Positions 5,202-32,095 of a DNA stretch of 32,095 bases are shown one piece after another. Source of the DNA: Candidatus Peregrinibacteria bacterium Greene1014_49 (GTDB taxonomy: Bacteria > Patescibacteriota > Gracilibacteria > Peribacterales > Peribacteraceae). Both the position numbers and the translations under genes were made by a program. The stretch lies in the NCBI GenBank assembly GCA_007376635.1, contig VMGQ01000001.1:1-32095 (forward strand). Reading direction: 5' to 3'. The first letter of the stretch is position 1. Each line of letters starts with the position of its first letter. Below the pieces are notes generated by a model. That model was not told the DNA's origin and searched no databases. It worked only from the letters and a program-made list of their open reading frames with translations.

Positions 5202-6878
5202 TTAATAGATTTCAGCTCGGTAACACTCTTCACACATCACTGTCTCCGTACGACCTGGAGCATATGTCGTCTCCATCCCCTTCCCGCATTTGGCGCATGC
5301 TCGATCCCAGAGCTTTCGTGGGTTCCTGAGCTTCAACCGCTCCATATAGCGGCAATCCGGACAAAGCGACGGTACTGGGACAATTTGCTGCCGATAGAAT
5401 GCGAGCTCCTGGGGAATGATTCGGTAATTGCGGGTGCATGCGCTACACGCAAGAATTTCTTCCGTGATACTTTCGGAAACATCGGTGATCTTCTCTGGAA
5501 CAGCCGCTGTTTGCGGACGGAAATCGCGAATGTCCTTTGCACGCCAGAGGAATCCCTTTGCGCGCGCCTGCTCTTCTGTAAGCGGGAAATATTCATTGGC
5601 AACCGACTCGTTATAACCGAATGGCGATAATGAAACAGGGAAGAATTGCCCGAATTCACTCGCCTTCTTCATGGCATCAATAATCTTCGGAACCAATGCT
5701 TCATATTCCTCTTCCGTGTACTGCTTATTAAAGATGCAATGCTTTTTCCGTGTGAGTCCCGAACATCCGAAACAATCGGAACAGCTGAAGCAGTACTCGC
5801 AGTAGAGAAGACGTTGTGAATGGAACACGTAGAGACAGTACGCGACGGTGTGTGCCTCGATTGTTCCGAGCGTCTCATAACAGAGCTCCGAGCGGACGTA
5901 CATGTTGCTGCTGTGATAGATATCTTTCGGCTCTACGCCTACTTGCACAGAACGGCAGTCCTGGCCATTGGTGACGTCGTAGCAATCAATGCAGTTGCGA
6001 GAGTTTTCGATCGCATCGCCGGTACACCCTTCGCAATTCACGACGTTGGCATATTTATGCACCATTTTTTTCATGGCATCTTTCCAAAGTTTCTGCATTT
6101 CCTGTGCACGTTGTAATGATCCGCGGAATGTTGCGGTGCGCTTCACGTATTCTTCCTTAGAGAGCGGCTGATTCATGAAATGATATTCCTTGTGATCGAG
6201 ATTGGTGCAGAGGCAGCAGTTCCGGCAACCGCGGAGATTGCTACTGAAGAAACAATCTTGGCAATTTTGGCTGTGACTGAGCCATTGGCACCCGTAGCAC
6301 TTCGTACAGCTGAAGGCTTCGTAACAGAGATCACTGTCGTACACGTAGCTGCAATCAATAGAATTCTTACATCGCTGCAGGAGCTTTCCGTAGTAGCAGT
6401 CCTCGCAGTATTCGGAGGAATTGATCAGGTAGCAATTCTTGCAGTACCCCGTCCCCGTCGTGAACCCCGAGTTTTCGTTCCCAAGACTGATGAGTGCCAT
6501 GCGTGGCACATCACGCTGCAACGCGGCGAACTGGTCGAAGAATGAACGGTTCAGATCGTAGTCGCGGCCATAACTCATCGGATCCCACGCATCGCTCTTC
6601 CACTCTTCCTGGGAATAGATCTTGAGTGGTTCTCCGATGATCGAGCCAGGGGCATAGATCGAGACAATGTCTTTTCCGGAGAATGATGAACGGTTTTTAG
6701 AGAGGAACCGTTCGTTACGGTGACATGTGCGCTTCTGTGTGCGGCAATCGGGACAGATTTCCGGCAATGGCAGATGTATTTGGGACTTCCCGAACCGGAA
6801 GAGCATCTTTGCGAGAAATGCCTCTTCATCCGGGGTGACCACGAAGCCGTTTTTACAGATTGCACAGGATCGTTCCAT
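5202..6878 (-). CDS. Cys-rich double zinc-ribbon protein, paralog A
   Basis: This 558-residue member shows the family layout. Residues 1-90 form an N-terminal zinc module. Residues about 140-250 are Cys array 1, closed by an RGCRNC..KEYHFMN cap. After a helical linker comes Cys array 2 (about 290-390), closed by DCFGC..KKHCIFNKQYTEEEY. A helical segment with FGYNES follows, then a C-terminal zinc module. The N-terminal module keeps CAIC and CPDC but has lost the second cysteine set (RSSFSGK). The C-terminal module keeps all four pairs: CSAC, CPDC, CAKC and CEEC. No signal peptide or membrane span is seen, so a cytoplasmic metal-binding protein is inferred. The function is unknown. ATG 6878 gives MERSCAIC, aligned with the other paralogs; the longer ORF-track start adds a non-conserved leader. 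It is divergent from a TrmB gene. Confidence 0.85.
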   Translation of the reverse strand: MERSCAICKNGFVVTPDEEAFLAKMLFRFGKSQIHLPLPEICPDCRTQKRTCHRNERFLSKNRSSFSGKDIVSIYAPGSIIGEPLKIYSQEEWKSDAWDPMSYGRDYDLNRSFFDQFAALQRDVPRMALISLGNENSGFTTGTGYCKNCYLINSSEYCEDCYYGKLLQRCKNSIDCSYVYDSDLCYEAFSCTKCYGCQWLSHSQNCQDCFFSSNLRGCRNCCLCTNLDHKEYHFMNQPLSKEEYVKRTATFRGSLQRAQEMQKLWKDAMKKMVHKYANVVNCEGCTGDAIENSRNCIDCYDVTNGQDCRSVQVGVEPKDIYHSSNMYVRSELCYETLGTIEAHTVAYCLYVFHSQRLLYCEYCFSCSDCFGCSGLTRKKHCIFNKQYTEEEYEALVPKIIDAMKKASEFGQFFPVSLSPFGYNESVANEYFPLTEEQARAKGFLWRAKDIRDFRPQTAAVPEKITDVSESITEEILACSACTRNYRIIPQELAFYRQQIVPVPSLCPDCRYMERLKLRNPRKLWDRACAKCGKGMETTYAPGRTETVMCEECYRAEIY

Positions 6879-6915
6879 AGGAAGAACGTAAAGATAGTGA
6901 TTAAAGTACAAGAAT

Positions 6916-6944
6916 CTTATATAATGGTGAAAATCACCTGTGAA
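6916..6944 (-). promoter_or_regulatory. Promoter of Cys-rich gene A
   Basis: Minus strand: TTCACA (6944-6939), a 17-nt spacer, then TATAAG (6921-6916). The -35 box overlaps the GTGAA-N6-TTCAC inverted repeat (6940-6955), so a bound regulator could block or recruit polymerase here. Confidence 0.55.
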
Positions 6945-6966
6945 GTGTTCTTCACGAGTAACAACA
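6945..6966 (+). promoter_or_regulatory. Operator-like box in front of the first TrmB gene
   Basis: The box GTGTTCTTC...AACAACA recurs almost identically before the second TrmB gene (9903-9925). In both places it ends 3-4 nt before the ATG. The inverted repeat GTGAA-N6-TTCAC overlaps its left part. A TATAAT at 6920-6925 would put the box in the 5' leader of the TrmB mRNA. Probable binding site of the TrmB proteins (inference). Confidence 0.5.
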
Positions 6967-6970
6967 CGAT

Positions 6971-7729
6971 ATGCTTACGGACTACCTTAAAACTCTTGGC
7001 CTCACAGAGAAGGAAACCCACATCGTTCTTGCACTTGCAGAACTTGGTGTACAGCCGGCTTCGGCAATCGCGCGTCGTACCGGTCTCGATCGCGTAACAG
7101 CCTATAAAAATCTTCACAAACTCGCAGAGCTTGGTTTTGTGCGCATCTATTTCCGCGATGCTGTGCAGTGTTTCGGTCTCGAGAGTATGGAAGTGATCGA
7201 GGGAAAGCTCCGTGATCGCTCGGAGTACGCGAGAGTGCTTCTCGAAAAATTTCCCACCGCAGCACAGCTTTTGAAATCTCTCGGAGGACAGGAAGGATCT
7301 GTTCCTGAATTGGAAATGTTTGAAGGAGCATCGGGGCTCAAGAGCCTGTTCCGGGATCTGCTCTTCGAACTCAAGAGCCAAAAGATTGAACAATTGCGCG
7401 TGCTCACATCAAATACCTATGAAGAACGTATTGATGATCCGGAGTTACCCGGAATCCTGAAATCCTTCTTTAAAGACCTGCAGGAACGCGGTATCCACAT
7501 TGAATATTTTGAGGCAACGGGCGGCATGGTCCCCGAACGGTTGCGAAATCTCGGAGAATCAAACCCAATGGAGGAAATGCTACGCGCGCAGGGAACGACG
7601 AATGTGTTTGTCGCTGGATCGGCGGTCTATCTCGCTTCGTACCGGGGTAGCAAAATAGGGCTGAAACTTAAGCATCATGATCTGAGTCAGATTTTTCATT
7701 TTTTGTTTGACGTTCTTGGGAAAACATAG
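6971..7729 (+). CDS. TrmB-family transcriptional regulator 1
   Basis: The product has 252 residues. The N-terminal winged helix-turn-helix starts MLTDYLKTLGLTEKE, with the recognition region ASAIARRTGLDRVTAYKNLHKL at about 30-55. A short coiled-coil stretch follows, then a C-terminal ligand-sensing domain of TrmB type (about residues 110-245, including FEGASGLKSLFRDLLFE and TNVFVAGSAVYLASY). TrmB proteins usually bind small molecules, often sugars, and repress or activate adjacent genes. It is transcribed away from gene A with 92 bp between the two starts and probably controls it and itself. It is clearly a paralog of the gene at 9929. The ligand is unknown; the local partners are metal-binding proteins, so a metal- or redox-linked signal is possible. 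Confidence 0.88.
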   Translation: MLTDYLKTLGLTEKETHIVLALAELGVQPASAIARRTGLDRVTAYKNLHKLAELGFVRIYFRDAVQCFGLESMEVIEGKLRDRSEYARVLLEKFPTAAQLLKSLGGQEGSVPELEMFEGASGLKSLFRDLLFELKSQKIEQLRVLTSNTYEERIDDPELPGILKSFFKDLQERGIHIEYFEATGGMVPERLRNLGESNPMEEMLRAQGTTNVFVAGSAVYLASYRGSKIGLKLKHHDLSQIFHFLFDVLGKT

Positions 7730-8172: not shown

Positions 8173-9846
8173 CTAGTACACAGTCTTAAGGTAGCATTCC
8201 TCACAGTACACAATTTCCGGGCGATCCGGGCTGTACGTCGTCTCGATCCCCTTCTGACACTTTGCACAGCTTCTCGGATACAGCGTGTGACGATTCTGCA
8301 CCGTGGAAAGTTTAAGAATGCGCTCATGCGGATGCAACCGCGGAACGGGCAATCCTTTCTTCCGATAGAGCGCCAGTTCCTGCGGAATGAGCCTGTAGGG
8401 CTTACCGCTTTCTGCAGAATGAATCGTGTAGTTCAGGATATCGTCCGGGACGTCTTTGATGTCTTCGGGTAGCCTTTCAGCTTCGATGCCTTTGAGTCCT
8501 TCAGGCAAGGACTGTTCGTAGTCCGACCACTGCCAACCGCGCTTGAGGACTTCATCTTTACTGAGCGGATACCACTCCGAAGCCTTTGATTCGTTGTAAC
8601 CAAAAGAGGAAATCGCAGCTTTCGGAAATCCTCCCCATTCACCAGTTTTCTCCATATGCGCGATGATCTTCGGAACCAATACTTCATATTCTTCCTTTGT
8701 ACACTGCGTATTGAATATGCAGCATTTCGCTTTTTTGAGACCAAAACACCCGAAGCAGTCGCTACAGCCGTGGCAGTTGTCGCAGTAGAGAAGATGATCG
8801 CATTGGTACGTGAGATTACAGAACGCGCTCATTTTGAGATCGATGACATTGCAGCAGTCATAGAGCAACTCTCCATCGCCGGAGCGCATGAGATCGAAAC
8901 AATCGGTATTGCGATGTCCTTCGTAAACGTAGAAGCAATCTTCAAAATACTTCGTGTTGTAGCCATGTTGGACGTTTTTGGAATGGAAAAGGTAATTGCC
9001 ACTGCAATTCTCCGAACCAATCTCCCAGATATGCGGAACCGGTATTGTGAGACGTAGTGCTTCAACTTGTTTCATAAATTCTTGGCGGTATTGTGAGTCC
9101 GTGAGTAGATGATTCCGCGTTTCGTCGAATTGCTCTGGCGTGACTGCTTCATTGAGAATCTGATTCGAGGCATTGCGGCGGCCAACACAGCCAAGAAGCC
9201 GGCTTCCGCCTTTGCAATCAATGCAGAACATCGCATCGGTAACGTTAAAACAGAGTTTCAGCCAATCGCCGTTGTAGCAATCTTCAGAAAAAACGCAGCT
9301 GCTACACAGCTCCATGCCCTCGCAGGAAAAGCAGTCGATAGAATCTAATGAATCAAATATGAAATCACTGAAGTAGACGTTCTCATCATCGATGATCGAA
9401 CTGCACATGTAGCAGTTCTTGTTTCTGGAACTGTGGACGGTGTAGTCGGAGTTTTCGCTCTGCGTATTGAAGATGCACAGTCGCGGCACTGCCTTCTTCA
9501 GCTCTCCGAACTGCTCAGCGAAATTCCTGGAGAAATCAAACGCTCGTCCGTACTGCAGAGCACTCCACTGATCCGACCAGAAGCATTCATGACACAAAAT
9601 CGGATATTCCTTATCCGGAGAGTAGATGGAGATCACCTGCTTCTTGCACGAGGAACAGGTATTTTTGTAGTAGTTGCTGTCATTACGGAAAGCGATGCGG
9701 CGCTGCTGCCTGCATGCAGGGCAATGCGTGGGAGGAGGCAATGGAATGACTTTGCCTCCTATGACCGGGGAAAGCTTCTTGAGCATTGCCAATTCATCAG
9801 CAGAGATCACGAACTGTTCCTTACAGACAACACACGGTTTCTTCAT
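8173..9846 (-). CDS. Cys-rich double zinc-ribbon protein, paralog B
   Basis: The product has 557 residues from ATG 9846 (MKKPCVVC). The 30 extra residues in the ORF track come from the divergent promoter region and are not conserved. The N-terminal module is intact, with CVVC, CPAC, CSSC and CHEC, the last within a CHECFWSDQW motif. The C-terminal module has lost the first two pairs (AESGKPY, LHPHER) and keeps CAKC and CEEC. The cap of Cys array 1 is degenerate: it reads RRNASNQILNEA where other members have NKEYCILN. The cap of array 2 is standard (CFGCFGLKKAKCCIFN). The gene stands as a single-gene unit, divergent from TrmB 2 at 9929 with 82 bp between the starts. No sigma70-like promoter is clear on its strand, which would suit activation by the neighbouring regulator. 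Confidence 0.85.
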   Translation of the reverse strand: MKKPCVVCKEQFVISADELAMLKKLSPVIGGKVIPLPPPTHCPACRQQRRIAFRNDSNYYKNTCSSCKKQVISIYSPDKEYPILCHECFWSDQWSALQYGRAFDFSRNFAEQFGELKKAVPRLCIFNTQSENSDYTVHSSRNKNCYMCSSIIDDENVYFSDFIFDSLDSIDCFSCEGMELCSSCVFSEDCYNGDWLKLCFNVTDAMFCIDCKGGSRLLGCVGRRNASNQILNEAVTPEQFDETRNHLLTDSQYRQEFMKQVEALRLTIPVPHIWEIGSENCSGNYLFHSKNVQHGYNTKYFEDCFYVYEGHRNTDCFDLMRSGDGELLYDCCNVIDLKMSAFCNLTYQCDHLLYCDNCHGCSDCFGCFGLKKAKCCIFNTQCTKEEYEVLVPKIIAHMEKTGEWGGFPKAAISSFGYNESKASEWYPLSKDEVLKRGWQWSDYEQSLPEGLKGIEAERLPEDIKDVPDDILNYTIHSAESGKPYRLIPQELALYRKKGLPVPRLHPHERILKLSTVQNRHTLYPRSCAKCQKGIETTYSPDRPEIVYCEECYLKTVY

Positions 9847-9902: not shown

Positions 9903-9925
9903 GTGTTCTTCTTTTAAGAACAACA
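9903..9925 (+). promoter_or_regulatory. Operator-like box in front of the second TrmB gene
   Basis: It contains the perfect inverted repeat GTTCTT-N5-AAGAAC (9905-9921) within GTGTTCTTC...AACAACA, matching the box at 6945. The right half-site of the inverted repeat is better preserved here than at 6945. Confidence 0.55.
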
Positions 9926-9928: not shown

Positions 9929-10744
9929 ATGCTCAAAGATTATTTAGGAAAACTCGGCCTCACAGATAAGGAGCAAACGATCTATCTGACGCTTGCAAGC
10001 ATCGGCGTGCAACCTGCATCCATCATCGCGAGACGACTGGATTTGGATCGCGTCGTTACCTACAAGCACCTGAAGAAGTTGGAATCTCTCGGACTTATGA
10101 AGGTGTACATCCGAGACGGCATTCAGTACTTCGGCGTGACGGGTGCAGAGGGTATCGCCGCGCATTTGCAAGATCGGGAACAGTCCGTCGAAGAACTTGC
10201 CGCACAGATCCCCGCCGTGGAAACAGAACTCAAGCAAATCATGCGGGGAGAAGGATTTGTCCCGACCGTCCAGGTCTTTCAGGGAAAATCCGGCATCAAG
10301 GCGCTTTTCAGAGATCTCCTCTTTGAAGCAAAAAATGAGCGAGTCGTACGCATCCGTATGCTCACATCCAATACATTTGACCAGCAGATGGGAACGACGA
10401 CGCTCGGCAAATTCACGGAGGAGTTTTTTAAAGATGCACAGAAGGCGAAGCTCGCAATTGAAATGCTCGAGGCGTCAGGAACACTGATTCCCGAATACAT
10501 TCGCCGCCTAGATCCTGCGCACTTCGACCCTCGTGAGTTTCCCGCAGCGCGTGGCGCAACGAACGTCTTTCTTGTGGGCACTGCGCTGTATCTGGCTTGC
10601 TATGGCGATTCGCTGATCGGACTGAAACTTAAGCAGGAACAAATGAGCCAGATCTTCCACTTCTTCTTCGATGCAATCGGGAAGAATTTGCCGCCGGCGG
10701 ATAGTAGGGCACCGAGGGAGTTGGAGACTTGGCTGAAGAAATAA
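9929..10744 (+). CDS. TrmB-family transcriptional regulator 2
   Basis: The product has 271 residues and is a close paralog of the regulator at 6971. The winged HTH begins MLKDYLGKLGLTDKEQTIYL with PASIIARRLDLDRVVTYKHL as recognition region. The sensor domain shares FQGKSGIKALFRDLLFEA, RMLTSNTFDQ and TNVFLVGTALYLACY with it. About 19 extra residues form a Pro/Arg-rich tail (KNLPPADSRAPRELETWLKK). It is divergent from Cys-rich gene B. The shared box upstream of both paralogs suggests auto- and possibly cross-regulation. It is followed 12 bp later by the promoter of a toxin-antitoxin operon, so it appears to be monocistronic. Confidence 0.88.
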   Translation: MLKDYLGKLGLTDKEQTIYLTLASIGVQPASIIARRLDLDRVVTYKHLKKLESLGLMKVYIRDGIQYFGVTGAEGIAAHLQDREQSVEELAAQIPAVETELKQIMRGEGFVPTVQVFQGKSGIKALFRDLLFEAKNERVVRIRMLTSNTFDQQMGTTTLGKFTEEFFKDAQKAKLAIEMLEASGTLIPEYIRRLDPAHFDPREFPAARGATNVFLVGTALYLACYGDSLIGLKLKQEQMSQIFHFFFDAIGKNLPPADSRAPRELETWLKK

Positions 10745-13654: not shown

Positions 13655-15352
13655 CTAGTATACCTCCTTCAAATAACACTCCTCACAATACACAATCTCC
13701 GGCCTCTCCGGCGAATACGTCGTCTTCATCCCTTTTCCGCACTTTCCACACTCTCGATCCCAAAACTTGCGCGGATTGCGCTTTGCAAACCGATCAAGAT
13801 GGCGCTGTTCGGGAGAGCGGCGAGGCAATGGGATTTGTTGCTCACGATAGAATTTCAATTCCTGCGCGATAATGCGAAAAGGTTTTCCCGTGACTTCGCA
13901 TCGCACCGCCCACTGCAAAATATCATCCGGAATAGCGGCGATGTCATCGGGGAGAGCATTCGCGGGAATCACTTTTTTGACATCCGGCAACGGTAATTCC
14001 TGATCATCCCACACAAATCCCTGCTCAAGTGCTTGCTGCCGTTCCAAGGGATAATAAAGTTGCGCTGTCGTGCGGTTGTAACCGAATTGGCTTTTATGGA
14101 TGCCAATGAGCTGTCCCCACTCATTGGTCTGCTGCATGTGTTCGATGATCTTCGGGATCAATACCTCGTATTCTTCCTTCGAATACTGCTTGTTCAAAAT
14201 GCAGTACTGCGCCCGCTGCATTCCGGCGCAGCCGAAACAATTCTTTGAGGCCTCCATGTACCAGCAATACAAAAGATCGACGCTGCTGACATTCACCTCG
14301 ATACAAAAAAGCACGCCACCGCAGTTTTCTCCACTGATGACGCATTCATAGGCATTTTGCAGATTGGTGCCGTATTGATAGACGTCGTAGACATTCTTGG
14401 ATCCGAGTACGAGCTGCGTACAGTACTTGGCATCCTCCACATCTTCGCAATCGAAACTCTCCTGCACATTTTTACAATTGTAGAGGTGATTCCCCATGCA
14501 GTTCTCCAGATTGTGCCCTTCGTACTCTTTGAATGGATGTTGTAGCTCGAGTGCCCGGCGAGTGGCCACATGCTCCTGGTATGTGCGATAAGATCCCGTG
14601 TGTATCGCTGCGATACGAGCGGTGTACCCCTCTTGAGAAAGTTGTTCATTCCCGAAGCAATAGCGCTTCTCCCGAAGCCCAACGCACTGAAAGCAATAGC
14701 TGCATCCCATACAATCCCGAAGAAAGGCACTCGCAGAGCAGTTGAAACAATCCTGACAACTTTTCAGTGCGTAACATTTGTGACAATCGATACAGTCGTA
14801 CAATAATTCGCTGTGGAGATTGTAAAACCCGTCCATGCAGGATCTGTTTTTCTTGAAACCATAGCCGTAATAGCAATCATCGCAGAAATCCGCATGCATG
14901 ATGAGATAGCAGTTTTTGCTGGATCCTGCGTAATGGATGTATTCCGAATTTTGACACTCTCCTTGCACGCTTAACGATTGTGCTGGAACGGCTTTCCGCA
15001 ACTCTGTTAATTGATCGAAGAACGGTCTCTCAAAATCCATTTCTCTCCCATGCTGCCCTGCATCCCACTTGTCACTATGCCAGCACTCCGGACAGTAATA
15101 CGTTTGCGGGCTATGCTGCGGAAACTGCGTAAGAGTGCGCTTAGCGCAAAGTCCGCACACTCCCGAATACAAATGGCGTTCATTGGCATGTCCCAGTCTG
15201 CGCTGTTGCCGGCAATCGGGACAAAGGGTTGGTGGAGGAATCGCATATTTCTTTCCACCAATGATGGGTGATATGTTGTCGTAAAATGCAAGATCAGCAT
15301 CGGTGATCTCAAAGGATTGGTCGCACCAGGAATTGGCACAGATGTTTTGCAT
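13655..15352 (-). CDS. Cys-rich double zinc-ribbon protein, paralog D
   Basis: The product has 565 residues from ATG 15352 (MQNICANSWC). An earlier in-frame ATG at 15364 would add MLIS, which also precedes the start of E. The N-terminal zinc module retains four pairs: C-x4-C, CPDC, CGLC and CPEC (in CPECWHSDKW). Only B shares this completeness. The C-terminal module keeps CGKC and CEEC but has CEVTGK and PEQR at the first site. Array 1 has several Cys-x2-Cys steps, for example CIDCHKC and CQDCFNC, capped by CFQCVGLREKRYCFGN. It is the third gene of the operon. A nested palindrome separates it from E. Confidence 0.85.
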   Translation of the reverse strand: MQNICANSWCDQSFEITDADLAFYDNISPIIGGKKYAIPPPTLCPDCRQQRRLGHANERHLYSGVCGLCAKRTLTQFPQHSPQTYYCPECWHSDKWDAGQHGREMDFERPFFDQLTELRKAVPAQSLSVQGECQNSEYIHYAGSSKNCYLIMHADFCDDCYYGYGFKKNRSCMDGFYNLHSELLYDCIDCHKCYALKSCQDCFNCSASAFLRDCMGCSYCFQCVGLREKRYCFGNEQLSQEGYTARIAAIHTGSYRTYQEHVATRRALELQHPFKEYEGHNLENCMGNHLYNCKNVQESFDCEDVEDAKYCTQLVLGSKNVYDVYQYGTNLQNAYECVISGENCGGVLFCIEVNVSSVDLLYCWYMEASKNCFGCAGMQRAQYCILNKQYSKEEYEVLIPKIIEHMQQTNEWGQLIGIHKSQFGYNRTTAQLYYPLERQQALEQGFVWDDQELPLPDVKKVIPANALPDDIAAIPDDILQWAVRCEVTGKPFRIIAQELKFYREQQIPLPRRSPEQRHLDRFAKRNPRKFWDRECGKCGKGMKTTYSPERPEIVYCEECYLKEVY

Positions 15353-15367
15353 GGAAATCAGCATACG

Positions 15368-17088: not shown

Positions 17089-17115
17089 GGAGATGAGCAT
17101 ACCCAAGTATTCAAA

Positions 17116-18825: not shown

Positions 18826-18833
18826 AGTGCCCA

Positions 18834-18980: not shown

Positions 18981-18987
18981 GGAATCT

Positions 18988-22420: not shown

Positions 22421-23185
22421 ATGAGTACACAACTCTTCGAAGACCTCGGACTCAGCATGAATGAGGCAAAAATCTACGATGCGCTCATAACCTATGGTGG
22501 TTCCGGCGTTTCCACTATTGCGCTTCGATCCAGTGTGCATAGAAGTAATGCATACGATTCTCTGCATCGTCTCATTAAAAAGGGGTTGGTGTACGAAGTA
22601 TTCAGCCAGAAAGAAACGATCTATGAAGCGGTAGATCCCGGAAAACTTTTAGAGTTCGTAGAAGAAAAACAAGCGAAAGTACAAGCCGCTCTCCCAAGCC
22701 TTCTTTCTCAGTTTCAACAGCACCGCTCACCGGAACGTGCATATATTTTCAAGGGGATAGAGGGTGTCAAAAACTATTTACGAGAAGCATTGAAGGTCGG
22801 AGAAAATATCTATTCCTTTGGCGCAAAGGGGGCATGGTTTGATCCGCGATTGGAAACATTTGTCCGCTGGTTTTTGAAAGAGGCCAAACGCAATAAAATC
22901 CAATACCACCATATTTTTGATCATGAAGTGCGAGAAAAACTTCCCCACGTCCTAAAGGCAGTCGGGAAGCCGTATAAATTCCTCCCCAAAGAGTATGCAA
23001 CGGATTCAACGATGGATGTTTTTGGCGACCACGTTGTGACCTTTCATGGATTGGAACTTGCGAAACTAAGAGACGATATCACCATTTTTGTGATGGTAAG
23101 TCCTGGGCTAGCCGAAAGTTACAGGGCATGGTGGAAGCTAGTCTGGGATCTCCTTCCGGAAGCAAAAAACCGAAGGGGGAAATAA
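22421..23185 (+). CDS. TrmB-family transcriptional regulator 4
   Basis: The product has 254 residues. The winged HTH starts MSTQLFEDLGLSMNEAKIYD, with the recognition region VSTIALRSSVHRSNAYDSLHRL and the wing SQKETIYEAVDPGKLLEFV. The sensor domain contains YIFKGIEGVKNYLREALKVG, a Trp/Phe-rich FGAKGAWFDPRLETFVRWFL, and GDHVVTFHGLE. It is very similar to TrmB 5 at 24743, so the two are recent paralogs that flank a transporter gene. It is divergent from the sORF-G unit and ends 15 bp from the convergent symporter gene. Confidence 0.88.
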   Translation: MSTQLFEDLGLSMNEAKIYDALITYGGSGVSTIALRSSVHRSNAYDSLHRLIKKGLVYEVFSQKETIYEAVDPGKLLEFVEEKQAKVQAALPSLLSQFQQHRSPERAYIFKGIEGVKNYLREALKVGENIYSFGAKGAWFDPRLETFVRWFLKEAKRNKIQYHHIFDHEVREKLPHVLKAVGKPYKFLPKEYATDSTMDVFGDHVVTFHGLELAKLRDDITIFVMVSPGLAESYRAWWKLVWDLLPEAKNRRGK

Positions 23186-24742: not shown

Positions 24743-25522
24743 ATGATCCATGCAGACCTCTTTCAAACGCTCGGGCTTTCTCCAAATGAATCGCGAATTT
24801 ATGAAGCTCTCCTCACATTCGGAGGTTCGGGTGTATCCACCATTGCCCTGCGTTCCGGTGTGCACCGCCGCAATGCCTACGACGCAATACACCGTCTTAT
24901 TGAAAAAGGACTTGTTTCAGAAGTATTCAGTCAGGGAGAAACGATTTACGAGGCAGTGGAACCCGGAAAGCTGATGGAATTTGTAAAAGAGAAGGAACGT
25001 CTGCTGGATGCAGCGTTGCCGGGGCTTTTCTCCACCTATCGTTCCCAGCGCGCGGTCCAACGCGCGTACATTTATAAGGGGGTGGAAGGCATGAAGAATT
25101 TCCTCCGTGAGGCTCTCAAAGTCGGTGAAGACATGTATGAATTTGGCGCAAAAGGCGCGTGGTTCGACCCGCGACTCGACACGTTTCTCCGATGGTTCCT
25201 CGTGGAAGCGAAGAAAAAGAAAATGACCTTTCATCATATCTTCGACTGGGAGGTGCAAGAAAAAGTCCCGCATGTTCCTGAAATTGTGGGAAAGCCCTAC
25301 AAATTCGCACCGAAGGCATATACATCGGAATCCGCCATCGAAGTCTTCGGCGACCATGTGGTCACGTTTAGTGGTCTGGGATTTGGGAAGGTGGAAGATG
25401 ACCTGACGATTTTCGTGATGGTGAGCCCGAGACTCGCCGAAAGCTACCGCATCTGGTGGCAGATGATGTGGGATTTGCTCCCGGAACCCGGAAAACAGAA
25501 GACTCCCCGGAAGAAGAAATGA
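24743..25522 (+). CDS. TrmB-family transcriptional regulator 5
   Basis: The product has 259 residues from ATG 24743 (MIHADLFQTLGLSPNESRIY). The ORF-track start at 24686 runs through the promoter. It shares long blocks with TrmB 4: GGSGVSTIALRSGVHRRNAY, EVFSQGETIYEAVEPGKLMEF, FGAKGAWFDPRLDTFLRWFL, and a C-terminal EPGKQKTPRKKK basic tail that TrmB 4 has only in short form. It is divergent from the SSF symporter, whose promoter lies in the shared 111-bp gap, so transporter control is its likeliest job. Its 3' end is 4 bp from the convergent stop of Cys-rich gene H. Confidence 0.88.
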   Translation: MIHADLFQTLGLSPNESRIYEALLTFGGSGVSTIALRSGVHRRNAYDAIHRLIEKGLVSEVFSQGETIYEAVEPGKLMEFVKEKERLLDAALPGLFSTYRSQRAVQRAYIYKGVEGMKNFLREALKVGEDMYEFGAKGAWFDPRLDTFLRWFLVEAKKKKMTFHHIFDWEVQEKVPHVPEIVGKPYKFAPKAYTSESAIEVFGDHVVTFSGLGFGKVEDDLTIFVMVSPRLAESYRIWWQMMWDLLPEPGKQKTPRKKK

Positions 25523-25526: not shown

Positions 25527-27179
25527 TTAGTATACGGTCTTCAAATAACACTCCTCGCAGTACACAATCTCGGGTCGCTCCGGATTGTAGGTCGTCTCCA
25601 TCCCCTTCCCGCACTTGCTGCACTCCCTGCTCCAAAGCTTACGGGGATTGCGGAGTGCATTGCGGTCTTTGTGACGTTGGTCGGGGCAGATTTTTGGAAG
25701 CGGCAATCCCATGGCGCGGTAGAATTTCAATTCTTGTGGGATGATCTTGTACGGTCTTCCTGTAACCGAACATCGGAGAATTCGGTTCGTGATTTCATCG
25801 GGAACATCGCGGATATCATGGGAAAGCTCCTGGTCGGGACCCAGACACTGATGTGCATCGCGTTCGGTATGCCACTTCCACCCCCGGGAGAGCACTTGCT
25901 TCTCCGTGCTTGGGAAATATTCGTTAGCCAGCGTTTCGTTGTATCCGAAGAGCGAAAGTGTAACGGGGAAAAATTCCCCCCATTGGCTATTTTTTTGCAT
26001 AGATTCGATGATTTTTGGCACCAGTGTCTCGTATTCCTCCTTCGTGAACTGCTTATTCAGGATGCAGTACTTCATGTGCTTCAATCCCGTACACAGGAAG
26101 CAGTGCTCACAATGGAAGCAGAGGCTGCAGTAGAGCAAATGCTTGTTGAACCAGCAGATGTCATTGAAGACATGCATGTAATTGGACTCGCTTCCGACCG
26201 CTTCGTACACGAGCTCGGAGTTATCGTCATTCGTGACGTCGTATGCGTCGCGCATGAACGTAGCGTTGGCAACAAATGCGCAATCCTCCACATTCATCAC
26301 CTCAAAACAGCAACGGGCATTTTTGGAGTGCTGGATGGCATTCCCTGTACACGCGACGGCATTCACGCTGTCCATGGATTTTCTGGGAAGTGACTGCAGG
26401 TGTTTTTCAAAGGACGTACGCAAAGCAGGGATGTCCCGCAGAAGTTTGGGGGCTTCCTCTTTGTATTCCACTTCCGTCCTCTGAACGTTGCCGATGCAGT
26501 AGGAAGCATTGCGGAGCCCAAAGCATCCGATGCAATGGTGGCATCCCTTCAGATCGTACCCCACATGGCAGTCATTGTTGTTCGTACAGCTGCGAAGATA
26601 CGTGCATGTATGGCAATGATCCGAATCCATGACTTCGTAGCACAATTCCGCATCATTCAAACTCGCACAGTCACAGACATTCCTGCATTTCCATGAGCGG
26701 TTGGTGTAGTACGAGTCTTCACACTCGGCACTGGTGAAGAGTAGATAGGAATTCCTGTTGTGCAAGGAAAAGTTGCAATACTCACTGTTCTCGTGCTCCT
26801 TGTTGATAAGGCTGATGCGAGGAACAACATGAAGAAGCTCCTGGAATTGGTCAAAGAACGAACGATCCCATGCAATTGGTCGCCCGTACGAAAGCGGATC
26901 CCACGCGTCTCCCCACCACGCACTCTGCTCATATACGGGATGAATGCTTTCAGGCCTGTACATCGTCACGATCTGCTTCCCGGTCAGATCACATTTCCGA
27001 TGGTACAAGTGGCGTTCATTGCGCCATGCCAATCGCCGTTGCTGCCGGCAATCCGGGCAAAGTTTCGGCGGCGGGATGTTATAGCGCTTACCGGCAAACA
27101 CCGGCGACACTTTTGTATAGAACGCGAGGTCGTCTTTGGTGATCTCAAATTCCGCCGAGCATTGTTTGCACACCTCCAT
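25527..27179 (-). CDS. Cys-rich double zinc-ribbon protein, paralog H, last gene of the K-J-I-H operon
   Basis: The product has 550 residues. ATG 27179 (MEVCKQC) overlaps the TAA of gene I by one base (TAATG). The ORF-track start lies inside gene I. The N-terminal module has CKQC, CPDC and CDLTGK with a lone Cys. The C-terminal module has CSVTGR, CPDQR (one Cys of the old pair kept), CSKC and CEEC. Array 1 has fewer close Cys pairs than usual and is capped by CIGCFGLRNASYCIGNVQ; array 2 is capped by CFLCTGLKHMKYCILNKQF. Very similar to I at both ends, hence probably a recent duplicate. Confidence 0.87.
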   Translation of the reverse strand: MEVCKQCSAEFEITKDDLAFYTKVSPVFAGKRYNIPPPKLCPDCRQQRRLAWRNERHLYHRKCDLTGKQIVTMYRPESIHPVYEQSAWWGDAWDPLSYGRPIAWDRSFFDQFQELLHVVPRISLINKEHENSEYCNFSLHNRNSYLLFTSAECEDSYYTNRSWKCRNVCDCASLNDAELCYEVMDSDHCHTCTYLRSCTNNNDCHVGYDLKGCHHCIGCFGLRNASYCIGNVQRTEVEYKEEAPKLLRDIPALRTSFEKHLQSLPRKSMDSVNAVACTGNAIQHSKNARCCFEVMNVEDCAFVANATFMRDAYDVTNDDNSELVYEAVGSESNYMHVFNDICWFNKHLLYCSLCFHCEHCFLCTGLKHMKYCILNKQFTKEEYETLVPKIIESMQKNSQWGEFFPVTLSLFGYNETLANEYFPSTEKQVLSRGWKWHTERDAHQCLGPDQELSHDIRDVPDEITNRILRCSVTGRPYKIIPQELKFYRAMGLPLPKICPDQRHKDRNALRNPRKLWSRECSKCGKGMETTYNPERPEIVYCEECYLKTVY

Positions 27180-28852
27180 TAATAAATGGTGGAAAGATAA
27201 CACTCTTCACAGTACACAATCTCCGGTCTCTTCGGACTATACGTCGTCTCGATCCCATTCCCGCACTTGCTGCACTTCCTGCTCCAGAGCTTGCGGAGGT
27301 TTCGTAGCGCCAAACGTTCTGTATGCCGCTGATCGGGACATTGTCTGGGAATGGGTAAGCCCATCAGGCGATAGAACTTGAGCTCCTGCGGGATAATCTT
27401 GAAGGGTTTTCCGGTGACACTGCAGGTGAGGATCTGTTCGCAGATGTCATCGGAGACGCCGTCGATGGTCGCGGGGACGGCAAACGCCGGACCCATGTAT
27501 GCATCCTTCTTTTCTTGGGTCTCATACCACTTCCAGCCGTTGTTGAGAGCGATATCGCGCGTGATGGGGTAGTACTCCTGCGCAAGCGTCTCGTTGTAAC
27601 CCATGGTGGAAAGTTGCGGATGCGGATACTCGCCCCACTCGCCAGTCTTGCGCATGTGTTCGATGATTTTGGGGACAAGCTCTTCGTATTCCTCTTTCGT
27701 ATACTGCTTATTGAGGATGCAATACTGCTTGCGCTTCATGCTGCTGCAGCCAAACACATTGGAACAGTGATGACACTCGCGGATGTAGTAGGCATCGTTG
27801 CCGTACCACAAGAGAAATGTCCCCATGGAACGCTCTGAACCGACGGTGGAGCAGACGTTGTAACAGAACCGTACTCCGTGCGGCGCGGTGTAGTTGGCAT
27901 CGCGACTGGAAAATCCCTTCGGAGTATTGGTGACGTACATGCAGTCCTCACAACCGGAGACGTCATAGCAGCTGCGGCAGTGTTTGGAGTTGAACACCAT
28001 ATCGCCGCTGGAGTCTTCCGAGGCAAACACGTACGCAGCCCGGTGCGGCAATCCAAGTTTCAGTGACGCCAGTCGCTTTTTGAGCAGATCGATTTTCTCC
28101 GCAGTGAGAGGAAGGAGCTCTTTCATGCGCTTTTCGTATTCCGCCTTACCGATGCGCTCGTTCAGGAAACAATACTCCTGGTTTTTGAGTCCGAAACACA
28201 GGCAGCAGTTCTTGCACCCCTGACAGTCCTCGATCATCAGGCAATCGCTGCAGTTGTGGCTGTAGAGCGTGAAATGACACTGGTAACACTCCTGCGAAGC
28301 GACGCATCCGTAGCACCAGCGGCAGGAGTAGAGCGAAAGTCCGTCGACGATGTTCTGGCAGCTGATGACGAAGCGCCCATAGAGAGAGTCTTCAATATCG
28401 GTCGCCCCCGCAATGAGATAGGTGTTGCGGGCGTTAAGCGAGTGGTTGGTGTAGTAACTGTTTTCCGCGTTCGTCGTGAAGAGCGACATGTGCGGGACTT
28501 CTTTATTGAGCACTTCAAATTGCTCAGTGAAAGTCTTGCTGAAATCAAATGGTCGTCCGTAGCTGCATTCATCCCATTTGTCGCTCCACCATTCATCCTG
28601 ATCATAGACGACGTACGGCTTGTCTGGTGCATACATCGATACGATCTGCTTTCCAGAGAGATCGGATTTACGATGGTAGAGCGTGAGATCGTTGCGAAAC
28701 AGAAGCCTCCTCTGGCACCTACAATCAGGGCACATTTGTGGCGCCGGAATGTCGTAACGCTTTCCTGAAAACGTCGGAGAGACGCTCTCATAAAACTGCA
28801 GATCATCTTTCGTGATCTCAAACGCTGCCGCACACTGTTTACAGGTAGGCAT
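27179..28852 (-). CDS. Cys-rich double zinc-ribbon protein, paralog I
   Basis: The product has 557 residues from ATG 28852 (MPTCKQC), sharing one base with the TGA of gene J (TGATG). The N-terminal module has CKQC and CPDC. The third pair is completely lost: HRKSDLSGK has Ser where most paralogs keep one Cys. The C-terminal module has CSVTGK, CPDQR, CSKC and CEEC. Array 1 has CQGCKNCCLCFGLKNQEYCFLNE as its end; array 2 ends CSNVFGCSSMKRKQYCILNKQY, where CxxC before FGC is replaced by CSNVFGC. It ends LSTIY, whereas H ends LKTVY. Confidence 0.87.
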   Translation of the reverse strand: MPTCKQCAAAFEITKDDLQFYESVSPTFSGKRYDIPAPQMCPDCRCQRRLLFRNDLTLYHRKSDLSGKQIVSMYAPDKPYVVYDQDEWWSDKWDECSYGRPFDFSKTFTEQFEVLNKEVPHMSLFTTNAENSYYTNHSLNARNTYLIAGATDIEDSLYGRFVISCQNIVDGLSLYSCRWCYGCVASQECYQCHFTLYSHNCSDCLMIEDCQGCKNCCLCFGLKNQEYCFLNERIGKAEYEKRMKELLPLTAEKIDLLKKRLASLKLGLPHRAAYVFASEDSSGDMVFNSKHCRSCYDVSGCEDCMYVTNTPKGFSSRDANYTAPHGVRFCYNVCSTVGSERSMGTFLLWYGNDAYYIRECHHCSNVFGCSSMKRKQYCILNKQYTKEEYEELVPKIIEHMRKTGEWGEYPHPQLSTMGYNETLAQEYYPITRDIALNNGWKWYETQEKKDAYMGPAFAVPATIDGVSDDICEQILTCSVTGKPFKIIPQELKFYRLMGLPIPRQCPDQRHTERLALRNLRKLWSRKCSKCGNGIETTYSPKRPEIVYCEECYLSTIY

Positions 28853-30525
28853 CAATAGACAGTGGAAAGATAGCACTCTTCACAATACACGGTTTCCGGG
28901 CGTTCGGGTGCGTAGGTAGTACGAATATCTTTCTTGCATTTGGCGCAGCTACGATCAAAGAGCTTGCGGGGATTGCGCTTCTGGAGACGATCCAGGTGCC
29001 GTTGATCAAAACACCTGCTCGGAATTGGGAGATTCATCCGTCGGTAAAATACGAGTTCCTGAGGAATGATCTTGTAGAGTTTTCCCGTGGCTTCGCACCG
29101 GAGAATTTTCTGGCACACATCATCGGCAACAGCATTAATTCGCTCTGGTACATCAATCACCGGTCCTAAGTACTGTTCTCCACTGGTTGTTGTTTCATTC
29201 TTCCATCGCCAACCACGAGCGAGAACTTCATTTTCGGAAAGCGGGAAATACATTGATGCGATTGTCTCGTTGTAACAGAAAGGCGAAAAGGTATGGGGAA
29301 AGAACTGACCCCAAATTCCCTCCTGCTGCATGGATTCTTTGATGAGAGAAAACATCTGCGCGTACTGCTCTTTTCCACATTGCTTGTTTAAAATGCAGTA
29401 TTGCTTGTTGTGAAGACCAACGCATCCAACACAATCTTGGCAGCTGTAACAGTTATCGCAGTAGGCAAGGTTGTTGGAAGTCGACATGCAGGTCTGACAA
29501 GAAACCAGCCCATAGCCGTACGATGTCAGACAGTTGTAGCAAAGCTCGGATGGTGCGGTGGAAAAGTTACAATCGGCACTGTGCTGAAATGAACCGAGCG
29601 TGGCACAGTGATAACAATCCTCACATTGCTTGAGATCGTACCCCTCGCAAATATTTTTTGAGTAGTAGAGATAGTCGCCGGTGACATTCTCGCATCCAAA
29701 TCCGTGATAGGACTTTACGATTTCCTTCCCAGTGAGAGTCGAAAGCCGCTGATGTGCCATGGCAATTGTCTGACGATTTCCCTGATCCAGTTCAGCAATT
29801 TTCTGCTGGTACTCCTCTCTACTATAGGGCTGATTGAAGATGTGGTACCGCTTGTTTTTTAAGCCCACGCATCCGAAACAGTCGCTACAAGCGCTGCAGT
29901 GCACCAGAAAAAGCGAGTTGGAACAATTGTCGCAGTCACGAGAGAAGAACACCGTGTTACATTCCACGCAATCGGTGCACTCGTAACAAAACTGACAACG
30001 GTAGCAATAGAGGCAGTCATAACAATCTTTAGAGCTCCACACGATATGACCGTAGGCGCAGTCCTCATTATCCACGCACCCGAACACAAGATAACAATTG
30101 CGGCTTCGAGAACTCATATTGCAGTAATCTGTATTTTCACACTGTGCATTGATGATGCTCATCCGGGGAACGGTGCGGTGCAAGATCTCGACCTGTTGCA
30201 GAAACGGAACCGACGCATTTCTGTCCATGCCAAAACTCAAAGCATCCCATTTATCACTCCACCACTCATGCATCTCGTACACAGGAAACGGTGCATCGAT
30301 GTCATACATGGAAATCATTTTCTTCCCCGAAAGATCACATGTGCGATGATAGAGATGGAAAAAATTGCGGAACATCAGTCGTCGTTGTCTCCGACAACTG
30401 GGACAATCGACAGGTTCCTGCACATCCATTGTTTTATAGAGCTCTCGTTCCGATTGTGTCATACGATATATATCACCACAGTTGAGACAAGTATTGCCTT
30501 TGGTGAGCGGGGTCAAACTATTCAT
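28852..30525 (-). CDS. Cys-rich double zinc-ribbon protein, paralog J
   Basis: The product has 557 residues from ATG 30525 (MNSLTPLTKGNTCLNC), one base overlapping the TAA of gene K. The N-terminus is longer than in the other members and the first finger differs: CLNC is followed by YRMTQSERELYKTMDVQEPV and then CPSC, without the usual FxIT..D segment. The C-terminal module reads CEATGK, CFDQR, CAKC, CEEC. Both array caps are standard (CFGCVGLKNKRYHIFNQ and CVGCVGLHNKQYCILNKQ). Array 2 contains CQTCMS and CDNCYSCQDC. Second known gene of the operon; further genes may lie beyond the window. Confidence 0.87.
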   Translation of the reverse strand: MNSLTPLTKGNTCLNCGDIYRMTQSERELYKTMDVQEPVDCPSCRRQRRLMFRNFFHLYHRTCDLSGKKMISMYDIDAPFPVYEMHEWWSDKWDALSFGMDRNASVPFLQQVEILHRTVPRMSIINAQCENTDYCNMSSRSRNCYLVFGCVDNEDCAYGHIVWSSKDCYDCLYCYRCQFCYECTDCVECNTVFFSRDCDNCSNSLFLVHCSACSDCFGCVGLKNKRYHIFNQPYSREEYQQKIAELDQGNRQTIAMAHQRLSTLTGKEIVKSYHGFGCENVTGDYLYYSKNICEGYDLKQCEDCYHCATLGSFQHSADCNFSTAPSELCYNCLTSYGYGLVSCQTCMSTSNNLAYCDNCYSCQDCVGCVGLHNKQYCILNKQCGKEQYAQMFSLIKESMQQEGIWGQFFPHTFSPFCYNETIASMYFPLSENEVLARGWRWKNETTTSGEQYLGPVIDVPERINAVADDVCQKILRCEATGKLYKIIPQELVFYRRMNLPIPSRCFDQRHLDRLQKRNPRKLFDRSCAKCKKDIRTTYAPERPETVYCEECYLSTVY

Positions 30526-32095
30526 TAATATACGGTAGATAGGTAACACTCCTCACAGTAGACCGTTTCAGGGCGCTCGGGAGCGTATGTCGTCTGAATT
30601 CCCTTCTTGCACTTGGCGCACTCCCGCTCCCAAAGCTGCCGCGGATTTCTGAGCTTCAATCGCCACTTGTGCCGCTCATCGGGATGCACATGCGGCACCG
30701 GAATGCCCATATCGCGGTAGAACTGCAGCTCCTGGGGAATGATTTTGAACGGCCTTCCCGTCGCTTCGCAGTGCAGGATCTGCGTGCAGATCTCGTCATC
30801 CACCTTCCGGATGTTATCAGGCAAATCCGCTGCGGGCCCCATGTAGTTTTTCTGCAAATCCTCTTCCTCTTGCCACTGCCAGCCGCGTTTGAGGACTTCC
30901 TCTTTCGTCAGCGGTACGTGTTCCTGCGCCAGCGACTCGTTGTAGGCGTAGATACTGTGCTGCGGAGAGAAGAACTTTCCCCATTCCCCCGTTTTTTGCA
31001 TGTGTTCGATGATCTTGGGGACAAGTTCTTCATATTCCAATTTGGTGTACTGCTTGTTGAAGATGCAGTACTCGTTCTTCCGTAAGCCCGAGCACCCGAA
31101 GCAGTTCTTGGAGCCGAAGCTGTGGTCGCAATAGATGAGCTCTGAGCACCCGTGCCAGCAGAGATTGCAGAAGAGAAGATGATACGGATCGTATCCGCAC
31201 GCCTGGCAGAAGTAGACGAGTTCCGCGTTTTGGCCCCAGTATGTGTAATCCATGCAATTCTTGGAATTCTGGATGCACTGGCAGTAGCTGCAATCTTCGA
31301 GATTGTTGCCTTCAAAGCACCACTTCGCATTCTTGCAATTACGGAGGTAATCGCCGCTGCAGTGATCGAGATTCATTCCGTGAAATTCCTTCACGATGGG
31401 ATCGCCGAGCATCTCTTCGATGCGCTGCTGCGCTGCCGTCATGTCTTTGTAACTCCCTGTATTCACGCTGCGAAGGAATTCTTCGTATTCAGTTTTCGTT
31501 TTTTGCTTGTTGAAAACCACATACTCTTTCTTGATTTGATTCGTGCATCCGAAGCAGTGCGTACACCCCTGACAATCACGCAGGAAGAAGCTGTCGCGGC
31601 AATTGATGCAGTCGCGGCTGTAGCGCAGGTTGTAGCAATCGCGGCATCCCACACATTCGTAGAGAAGTTCACAATGCTCAAGATTCAGATTGTCGATGCA
31701 GGTATTGCACTGATTGATCCATGATCCGAAGTAGCAGTCTTCATCTTGGTTGCTACTGAAAAGGAGATAGCAATTTTTGAGCTGACTTCCCGTATTGCAA
31801 TAATCGCTGTTTTCATACGGCTTCTCGAGAATGCGTGCCATGCGTGGAACGCGTGACTGGAGCGCAAAGAACTGCTCGAAGAATGGCTTCCTGAAGTCGA
31901 AATCCACTCCGTAATCGAGTGCACTCCATTTGTCGCTGTACCATTCGTCATTCTCGTACACGGGAAACGGTTTGTCTGTGGAATAGCAAGAAATCATCTG
32001 TTTCCCTGTGAGATCGCATTTGCGATGATAGAGGAACCGCTCATTGCGACGTGCGAGGCGGAGCTGCATGCGACAACGCGGACAGAGATCTGGTG
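30525..32095 (-). CDS. Cys-rich double zinc-ribbon protein, paralog K, N-terminus outside window
   Basis: The frame is open to the window edge: codons before the ORF-track ATG read PDLCPRCR, the end of the first zinc site, so the gene starts upstream. At least 522 residues are visible; about 35-40 are missing if it matches its paralogs. The N-terminal module keeps CPRC and a single Cys in CDLTGK. The C-terminal module has CEATGR, HPDER, CAKC and CEEC. Array 1 is capped by CTHCFGCTNQIKKEYVVFNKQ and array 2 by CFGCSGLRKNEYCIFNKQY. Its stop overlaps the start of J. The operon promoter is not in the window. Confidence 0.87.
   Translation of the reverse strand, partial: PDLCPRCRMQLRLARRNERFLYHRKCDLTGKQMISCYSTDKPFPVYENDEWYSDKWSALDYGVDFDFRKPFFEQFFALQSRVPRMARILEKPYENSDYCNTGSQLKNCYLLFSSNQDEDCYFGSWINQCNTCIDNLNLEHCELLYECVGCRDCYNLRYSRDCINCRDSFFLRDCQGCTHCFGCTNQIKKEYVVFNKQKTKTEYEEFLRSVNTGSYKDMTAAQQRIEEMLGDPIVKEFHGMNLDHCSGDYLRNCKNAKWCFEGNNLEDCSYCQCIQNSKNCMDYTYWGQNAELVYFCQACGYDPYHLLFCNLCWHGCSELIYCDHSFGSKNCFGCSGLRKNEYCIFNKQYTKLEYEELVPKIIEHMQKTGEWGKFFSPQHSIYAYNESLAQEHVPLTKEEVLKRGWQWQEEEDLQKNYMGPAADLPDNIRKVDDEICTQILHCEATGRPFKIIPQELQFYRDMGIPVPHVHPDERHKWRLKLRNPRQLWERECAKCKKGIQTTYAPERPETVYCEECYLSTVY

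What the first reader, a model, noticed from the sequence alone, without database searches (positions are those of the whole stretch)
5202..32095. Candidate new system: eleven Cys-rich paralogs in five units, four of them paired with a divergent TrmB regulator
Seen directly: all eleven Cys-rich genes are on the minus strand and all five TrmB genes on the plus strand. Units A, B, F-E-D-C and sORF-G each start back-to-back with a TrmB gene; the start of K-J-I-H is outside the window. The TrmB genes fall into three subgroups (6971/9929, 22421/24743, 18988), so regulators and effectors appear to have been duplicated as modules. I recall single Cys-rich relatives in CPR genomes with uninformative annotations, but know of no function and no description of this regulator pairing. 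Inference: paralogous metal-binding proteins are switched on by different small-molecule signals.
Basis: partly seen in the sequence, partly recalled or inferred. Interest (0 to 1): 0.9.

Follow-up and report, generated by a model that had tools for sequence, protein, structure and literature searches.

The report
Cysteine-solenoid protein arrays with dedicated motor
In ultra-small Patescibacteria, large families of cysteine-rich proteins, each group with its own switch protein, almost always come with one dedicated DNA/protein-moving motor ATPase found in no sampled genome that lacks them, which points to an undescribed "one motor, many swappable partners" system.

Summary
Eleven Cys-rich paralogs (35-48% identical) lie on the minus strand and five TrmB-type regulators on the plus strand. 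Four units start back-to-back with a TrmB gene; the fifth TrmB faces a sodium:solute symporter. The pairing is not local coincidence: a divergent TrmB heads 38 of 95 evaluable units in related genomes and 38 of 108 in named GTDB contigs (about 0.2 expected).

The 746-aa VirD4/VirB4-like ATPase at 1921-4161 belongs to an ortholog group encoded directly beside the Cys-rich genes. Among 287 genomes across the phylum it occurs in 20 of 21 with full-length Cys-rich proteins and in 0 of 266 others. Nearly all orthologs end in a conserved peptide (...F-E-E-P-L-I).

The Cys-rich protein is a confident novel model (pLDDT 91): two Zn-finger modules flanking two 12-residue-repeat beta-solenoids, internally duplicated. 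Solenoid cysteines swap freely with Ser/Ala/Val, so they look like core packing rather than metal ligands.

Best reading: one soluble secretion-type motor works with many separately switched Cys-solenoid partners, probably cargo or cargo receptors of a type IV-like export system. The partnership is strongly supported; export itself is inference. Module duplication is not supported inside the window.

The parts
1921..4161 (-). Dedicated VirD4/VirB4-like motor ATPase (746 aa) with C-terminal peptide ...EERFEEPLI
   Evidence: PF02534, PF10412, DUF87 above cut-off; Walker A GKSGSGKS and DE pair conserved; ortholog group adjacent to and co-occurring with the Cys-rich family; AF2 pLDDT 86, Foldseek to TrwK/VirB4, HerA, TrwB
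5202..6878 (-). Cys-rich solenoid protein A
6940..6955 (.). Imperfect dyad GTGAAGAACACTTCAC between A and TrmB 6971 (candidate operator)
   Evidence: inference
6971..7729 (+). TrmB-type regulator, divergent from A
   Evidence: PF01978 35.8 bits, cut-off 25.6
8173..9846 (-). Cys-rich solenoid protein B
9904..9925 (.). Dyad TGTTGTTCTTAAAAGAAGAACA between B and TrmB 9929 (candidate operator)
   Evidence: inference
9929..10744 (+). TrmB-type regulator, divergent from B
   Evidence: PF01978 32.1 bits
11957..13648 (-). Cys-rich solenoid protein C
13655..15364 (-). Cys-rich solenoid protein D
15427..17106 (-). Cys-rich solenoid protein E
17116..18834 (-). Cys-rich solenoid protein F, first gene of unit F-E-D-C
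18952..19752 (+). TrmB-type regulator (start may be 18988), divergent from F
   Evidence: PF01978 47.3 bits
20459..22135 (-). Cys-rich solenoid protein G; the protein whose structure was predicted
22421..23185 (+). TrmB-type regulator, divergent from sORF-G
   Evidence: PF01978 58.9 bits
23201..24631 (-). Sodium:solute symporter, divergent target of TrmB 24743; not seen at other arrays
   Evidence: PF00474 1.4e-37; no match in the other fetched loci
24743..25522 (+). TrmB-type regulator, sister of 22421, divergent from the symporter
   Evidence: PF01978 54.1 bits; 67% identity to 22421
25527..27203 (-). Cys-rich solenoid protein H
27179..28876 (-). Cys-rich solenoid protein I
28852..30549 (-). 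Cys-rich solenoid protein J
30525..32095 (-). Cys-rich solenoid protein K, 5' end cut by the contig end

Best explanation
The locus is one copy of a recurrent Patescibacteria gene system with three parts: (1) a divergent TrmB-type regulator; (2) one to eight tandem genes for a Cys-rich protein (here called CSP) built as Zn module - beta-solenoid - beta-solenoid - Zn module; (3) one soluble ATPase of the VirB4/VirD4/HerA motor superfamily per genome, usually directly 3' of a CSP gene on the same strand. Mechanism I commit to: the ATPase is a hexameric motor dedicated to the CSPs, which are interchangeable partners (cargo, or receptors that bring cargo). The conserved end domains of CSPs are the part the motor recognises, perhaps through the ATPase's C-terminal peptide F-x-x-P-[LI]-[ILV]; the more variable solenoids differ between paralogs and set what each one binds. 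TrmB proteins decide which CSP set is made. The most likely use is type IV-like export to a partner cell. Shown: gene order, co-occurrence, conserved motor residues, conserved C-terminal peptide, domain duplication, TrmB pairing. Inferred: physical interaction, recognition by the tail, hexamer, export, and the sense of TrmB control.
For: Co-occurrence: across 287 phylum genomes the full-length ATPase ortholog is in 20 of 21 genomes with full-length CSPs and 0 of 266 others (Fisher 7e-30). The 21st, G214, has a shorter ATPase ending GGEPLI 0.85 kb from two CSP genes. In 59 relatives (own genome included): 26 of 29 with full-length CSPs, 0 of 30 others; two same-genus species have both and two have neither. 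Adjacency: in 36 genomes, 32 have a CSP gene within 1.4 kb of the ATPase, 30 of them on the same strand; it is a neighbour in 32 of 90 locus groups, the next family in 9. 35 of 36 end in a ..P-[LI]-[ILV] peptide; generic paralogs do not. TrmB: 38/95 and 38/108 unit heads, expected about 0.2. Structure: pLDDT 91, pTM 0.90; end modules homologous to each other (hhalign 99.7%), solenoids too (99.95%); ends more conserved than solenoids (entropy 1.7-1.9 vs 2.2-2.4). T4SS: a T4SS_pilin protein (PF18895) lies on C11 of the same genome, and VirD4 homologues in Patescibacteria are reported as mostly far from virB4 and possibly exapted (PMC12102498).
Against: No direct evidence of interaction or export. 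The ATPase has no transmembrane anchor by hydropathy, unlike a canonical VirD4. No relaxase or channel gene was recognised at the loci. CSPs have no signal peptide-like start, and all paralogs keep one fold, whereas known effector sets are diverse. Most copies are satellites far from the ATPase gene. G020 and G056 have CSPs but no full-length ortholog, and G030 shows only a contig-end fragment. The full-length cut-off for the ATPase was chosen after seeing the scores: without the two most remote members the count is 18 of 21 against 0 of 266.
Confidence: 0.45

Rival explanations
1. A cytosolic DNA-handling or anti-invader machine: a HerA-like motor with many nucleic-acid-binding recognition proteins, expressed under separate switches.
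For: The motor superfamily includes HerA, and weak PADLOC HerA/mad8 hits exist. The C-terminal Zn module is basic (mean net charge +6.5) with conserved R-x3-R helices. Distribution is patchy and arrays expand. Toxin-antitoxin genes sit between units. ORF6N proteins, a PADLOC candidate family, replace TrmB at some heads.
Against: No nuclease or other effector domain found in CSPs; CSPs have no PADLOC hit; no recurrent known defence genes among neighbours.
Confidence: 0.25
2. One reading: paralogous metal-binding or metal-storage proteins, switched by TrmB according to small-molecule signals, with no special role for the ATPase.
For: About 41 Cys per protein; nearly invariant CxxC pairs at both ends; TrmB pairing.
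Against: Solenoid Cys columns are freely Ser/Ala/Val/Leu; strict co-occurrence with one motor ATPase is unexplained.
Confidence: 0.1
3. The ATPase and CSPs are joint passengers of one mobile island and do not work together.
For: Patchy presence; toxin-antitoxin genes and a tRNA-Ser gene near the window locus.
Against: No recurrent integrase, relaxase or other cargo gene; the pair persists in distant classes with different flanks (G071, G318, G247); the ATPase stays single while CSPs multiply and scatter.
Confidence: 0.12
4. TrmB pairing reflects chance or the abundance of TrmB genes in these genomes.
For: TrmB genes are common: 217 matches in 59 genomes, the own genome included.
Against: Expected about 0.2 divergent pairs per roughly 100 heads, observed 38; 6 of the 11 above-cut-off TrmB genes of this genome face a Cys-rich unit.
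Confidence: 0.01

Closest known systems
VirD4/TrwB type IV coupling proteins and VirB4/TrwK (HerA/FtsK superfamily motors)
   Same: Pfam T4SS-DNA_transf, TrwB_AAD_bind and DUF87 above cut-off; Foldseek to TrwK/VirB4 (2e-15), HerA (2e-12) and TrwB (TM 0.62 by target length); Walker A and DE residues kept
   Different: No transmembrane anchor, a VirB4-like N-terminal region, a short C-terminal peptide, and a strict tie to CSP genes instead of relaxase or channel genes
Generic VirD4-like paralogs present throughout Patescibacteria
   Same: Same motor core, up to about 50% identity over part of the length
   Different: Mostly longer (830-1,100 aa), lack the F..P[LI][ILV] tail, present in nearly every genome with or without CSPs
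zf_Tbcl_2 (PF23477) / TIGR04272 CxxC-x17-CxxC domain
   Same: C-terminal module has C528-x2-C531-x17-C549-x2-C552
   Different: The window CSPs score below both curated cut-offs and carry solenoids and a second Zn module
Insect (Tenebrio-type) antifreeze beta-solenoid
   Same: 12-residue, three-spaced Cys pattern; weak match to a Vibrio phage protein annotated 'insect antifreeze protein' (5e-4)
   Different: No secretion signal seen, longer, Zn modules at both ends; no PDB antifreeze match by sequence and no PDB fold match at E <= 0.001
Large extracellular cysteine-rich proteins of Ca. Peribacter riflensis (PMC4736985)
   Same: Same lineage, a multi-gene cluster, about 7% Cys
   Different: Those average 1,655 aa and most have signal peptides; CSPs are about 560 aa without one
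TrmB-family regulators
   Same: PF01978 winged helix above cut-off; divergent, regulator-like position
   Different: About 250 aa; no match to a sugar-binding C-terminal domain model was returned

Membership tests
Type IV coupling protein (VirD4/TrwB) | RecA-like motor core with Walker A and B | tested here: met
Type IV coupling protein (VirD4/TrwB) | N-terminal transmembrane anchor | tested here: not met
   Maximum 19-residue hydropathy about 0.9-1.6 in the aligned orthologs
Type IV coupling protein (VirD4/TrwB) | Encoded with relaxase or channel genes | tested here: not met
   No such genes recognised among the recurrent neighbour families; only CSP and TrmB recur widely
Type IV coupling protein (VirD4/TrwB) | Recruits substrates to a secretion channel | not testable with these tools
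   Needs binding or translocation assays
HerA-NurA or HerA-type defence | Partner nuclease or effector | tested here: not met
   CSPs have no PADLOC hit and no nuclease model
TrmB family | TrmB winged-helix domain above cut-off | tested here: met
TrmB family | Sugar-binding effector domain | tested here: not met
   No such Pfam model among hits at E<=1 for the four scanned regulators; NCBIfam TrmB models far below cut-off
zf_Tbcl_2 / CxxC-x17-CxxC | Four Cys with exact 2-17-2 spacing | tested here: met
   C528, C531, C549, C552, 95-100% conserved
zf_Tbcl_2 / CxxC-x17-CxxC | Score over the curated cut-off | tested here: inconclusive
   Window proteins score below it; several homologs pass PF23477 in six-frame scans
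Metallothionein-like metal store | Most Cys conserved as ligands | tested here: not met
   Many solenoid columns are mixed, e.g. position 178 C44/S40 and 291 S44/C40
Insect-type antifreeze solenoid | 12-residue Cys-containing beta-helix turn | tested here: met
   Cys autocorrelation 0.67 at lag 3 and 0.65 at lag 12 in solenoid 1; beta-rich solenoid pattern in the model
Insect-type antifreeze solenoid | Ice binding and extracellular location | not tested
   No signal peptide-like start seen

The most novel reading that the evidence does not exclude
An undescribed bacterial system in which a single dedicated secretion-type motor is served by a large, individually regulated repertoire of double beta-solenoid proteins, used by episymbiotic Patescibacteria to act on partner cells.
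Probability: 0.35. Interest if true: 0.88.

Novelty: categorically new. Interest (0 to 1): 0.75.

Why it matters
Patescibacteria have small genomes, yet some spend about 2-3% of them on this family: up to 24 matches per genome at about 1.7 kb each. VirD4-like ATPases are known to be abundant in the phylum, mostly far from virB4 and possibly exapted (PMC12102498); this work gives one group of them a specific partner family. If the CSPs are exported, they would be a large candidate set of molecules for the interaction between episymbiont and host, an open question in the phylum. The strict one-motor-to-many-partners rule and the conserved C-terminal peptide make the hypothesis directly testable with purified proteins. 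The fold, a Cys-rich double solenoid capped by Zn modules, has no match in the PDB at E <= 0.001.

Tried and rejected
- Module duplication inside the window: rejected by pairwise identities.
- The sORF in front of G as a system part: no significant homolog in any other locus.
- The symporter at 23201-24631 and the 243-aa ORF at 4278-5009 as system parts: neither found in the other fetched loci; in the same-genus genome G002 the ATPase directly follows a CSP gene without that ORF.
- Known defence system: no PADLOC hit for CSPs.
- Phage or plasmid origin: one partial viral contig, no plasmid match, and only the solenoid-level match in one Vibrio phage.
- Structure transfer from the PDB for the CSP: no usable fold match. 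BFVD hits are long repeat proteins with TM about 0.1.
- PDB sequence search with the family profile: only weak LIM-domain zinc-finger matches at the C-terminal module.
- Operator search: dyads are somewhat stronger than in composition shuffles (6.9 vs 5.8), but no shared motif was found across subgroups, so this stays suggestive.
Full report
What is there. The window is a complete 32,095-bp contig (C103) of a 1.36-Mb genome, 96% complete, from the Peribacteria/Peregrinibacteria side of the Patescibacteria, judging by the names of the closest relatives. Eleven Cys-rich ORFs (A-K, called CSPs below) lie on the minus strand and five TrmB-type regulators on the plus strand. The CSPs are 35-48% identical and align over their whole length. 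The genome has more copies on C34, C50 and C55. On C34 two further CSP units again face a TrmB gene, so 6 of the 11 above-cut-off TrmB genes of the genome face a CSP unit. The fifth window TrmB (24743) faces a sodium:solute symporter instead.

Is the TrmB pairing real? Yes. I fetched CSP arrays from related genomes and 78 named loci from the GTDB collection, found CSP and TrmB genes with profiles built here, and counted units with a divergent TrmB within 900 bp of the first CSP: 38 of 95 evaluable heads in relatives and 38 of 108 in the GTDB loci. The two sets share some genomes, so they are not fully independent. Chance expectation is about 0.2 in each (a rough calculation from TrmB density). 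Arrays split by gaps over 400 bp count as separate heads, so the fraction is an underestimate. CSP and TrmB copy numbers also correlate across 59 genomes (Spearman 0.41, p 0.001). Some heads without TrmB carry a divergent ORF6N-domain protein instead, so the regulator can be replaced.

Were regulators and effectors duplicated together? Not in this window. TrmB 6971 and 9929 are 48% identical, but A and B are only 35% identical, A's lowest value. TrmB 22421 and 24743 are 67% identical but face a CSP and a symporter. Across genomes, distances of paired TrmB and CSP correlate (Mantel r 0.40, p 0.0005, 59 pairs), yet in the 24-pair subset the second CSP of an array correlates equally well (0.50 against 0.52), so this does not separate co-duplication from shared species history.

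Clustering all neighbouring ORFs showed one family far ahead of the rest: a 746-aa ATPase, present next to CSP arrays in 32 of 90 locus groups; the next family is in 9. In the window it is the gene at 1921-4161. It matches T4SS-DNA_transf, TrwB_AAD_bind and DUF87 above cut-off, keeps the motor residues, and its model resembles VirB4/TrwK, HerA and TrwB. It usually lies directly 3' of a CSP gene on the same strand. In 36 genomes checked one by one, 32 have a CSP gene within 1.4 kb, 30 of them on the same strand. Related VirD4-like paralogs occur in nearly all genomes of the phylum (281 of 287), so I separated the dedicated group by full-length alignment. Across 287 genomes drawn evenly from the phylum it is in 20 of the 21 with full-length CSPs and in none of the 266 others (Fisher 7e-30). 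The one apparent exception, G214, has a shorter relative with the same kind of tail 0.85 kb from two CSP genes. Among 59 close relatives, the own genome included, the count is 26 of 29 against 0 of 30; inside the genus, G002 and G004 have both, G001 and G003 neither. The exceptions are G020, G056 and G030; G030 shows an ATPase fragment at a contig end beside a CSP. The cut-off was set after seeing the scores: the two most remote ATPases (G071, G318; 44-45% identity) score close to the best generic ones, but both sit beside CSPs and have the tail.

A conserved tail. In 35 of the 36 dedicated ATPases the protein ends in a short peptide of the form F-x-x-P-[LI]-[ILV] or close to it (G214: GGEPLI; G128-type variants such as VEEPII occur); G040, which appears broken there, does not have it. 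Generic paralogs in the same alignment lack it. The tail is disordered in the model (pLDDT about 35-49). That is what a docking peptide would look like, but no binding was tested.

What the CSP is. AlphaFold2 with 98 sequences gives a confident model (pLDDT 91, pTM 0.90). Profile comparison shows that residues 4-91 and the C-terminal module are homologous (99.7%), and that the two central Cys-rich regions are homologous to each other (99.95%). The architecture is therefore Zn module - solenoid - solenoid - Zn module. Cys positions in the solenoids repeat every 3 and 12 residues (autocorrelation 0.67 and 0.65 in solenoid 1), and one solenoid weakly matches a phage protein annotated as insect antifreeze protein, so the repeat type has a known analogue. 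The end Cys (5, 8, 42, 45 and 528, 531, 549, 552) are 84-100% conserved, while many solenoid Cys columns are shared with Ser, Ala, Val or Leu. I read the ends as zinc sites and the solenoid Cys mainly as core packing. The ends are also the most conserved parts of the protein and the solenoids less so. There is no signal peptide-like or transmembrane segment, no PDB fold match at E <= 0.001, and no family model above cut-off for the window proteins tested.

How it most likely works. One motor gene per genome, many CSP paralogs, and separate switches suggest a motor with exchangeable partners. Conserved ends would serve the common task (meeting the motor), variable solenoids the individual task (binding a target). 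The motor belongs to a superfamily that moves DNA or proteins, often as coupling proteins of type IV secretion. The genome has a T4SS_pilin protein on C11, near a generic paralog. A published survey found 5,713 VirD4 homologues in 2,918 Patescibacteria genomes, only 148 of them near virB4, and raised the possibility of exaptation (PMC12102498). I therefore favour export of CSPs, or of something they carry, to a partner cell, at about 0.3 on its own; DNA handling is the main rival. The wider statement that ATPase and CSPs work together I hold at about 0.85.

What is known. The Peribacter genome paper describes large extracellular Cys-rich proteins (PMC4736985), which differ in size and signal peptides. 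Searches of the paper library found no description of this family, its TrmB pairing or the ATPase link; the library lacks most subscription papers, so this is not proof of absence.

Noticed in passing
window 10757-11324 (+), 11330-11917 (-), 19753-20351 (-): Three RelE/ParE/YafQ-type toxin-antitoxin modules lie between CSP units (Pfam).
   Followed up: partly
window 100-917: The prfB (release factor 2) reading frame is broken near 675-720; the same-genus genome G002 has one 291-aa ORF there (L215). Could be a MAG sequencing error.
   Followed up: no
window 4278-5009 (+): A 243-aa ORF with a HEIGH motif, found in no other fetched locus, sits between CSP A and the ATPase.
   Followed up: partly
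window 23201-25522: SSF symporter divergent from TrmB 24743, suggesting this TrmB subgroup can also control transport.
   Followed up: partly
L109, L143, L144, L172: ORF6N-domain proteins (PADLOC candidate PDC-S05) sit divergently at some CSP heads where TrmB is absent; in L143 one lies beside the TrmB.
   Followed up: partly
L157 1-11302: A tandem array of CSP genes reads as full-length ORFs only with TGA=Gly (code 25), so the family also occurs in recoded Gracilibacteria-type genomes.
   Followed up: yes
L212 (G243) 4900-10250: A remote variant: 1,016-aa VirD4-like ATPase, a sigma-region-4/HARE-HTH protein, and a CSP-like protein split into solenoid (301 aa) and Zn (98 aa) genes.
   Followed up: partly
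L159 24-1742: A generic VirD4-like ATPase next to a CSP carries a CxxC...CxxC motif after its motor core, similar to the CSP C-terminal zinc finger.
   Followed up: no
relatives: Most genomes of the family carry one short (about 105-140 aa) PF23477 protein, with or without CSPs; possibly the ancestor of the CSP end modules.
   Followed up: no
L182: CSP-ATPase pair on a contig labelled Nitrospirota; mis-binning or horizontal transfer not resolved.
   Followed up: no
L218 3914-4288: Vibrio phage 1.238.B protein annotated 'insect antifreeze protein' shares the Cys-solenoid repeat (31% over 105 aa).
   Followed up: partly
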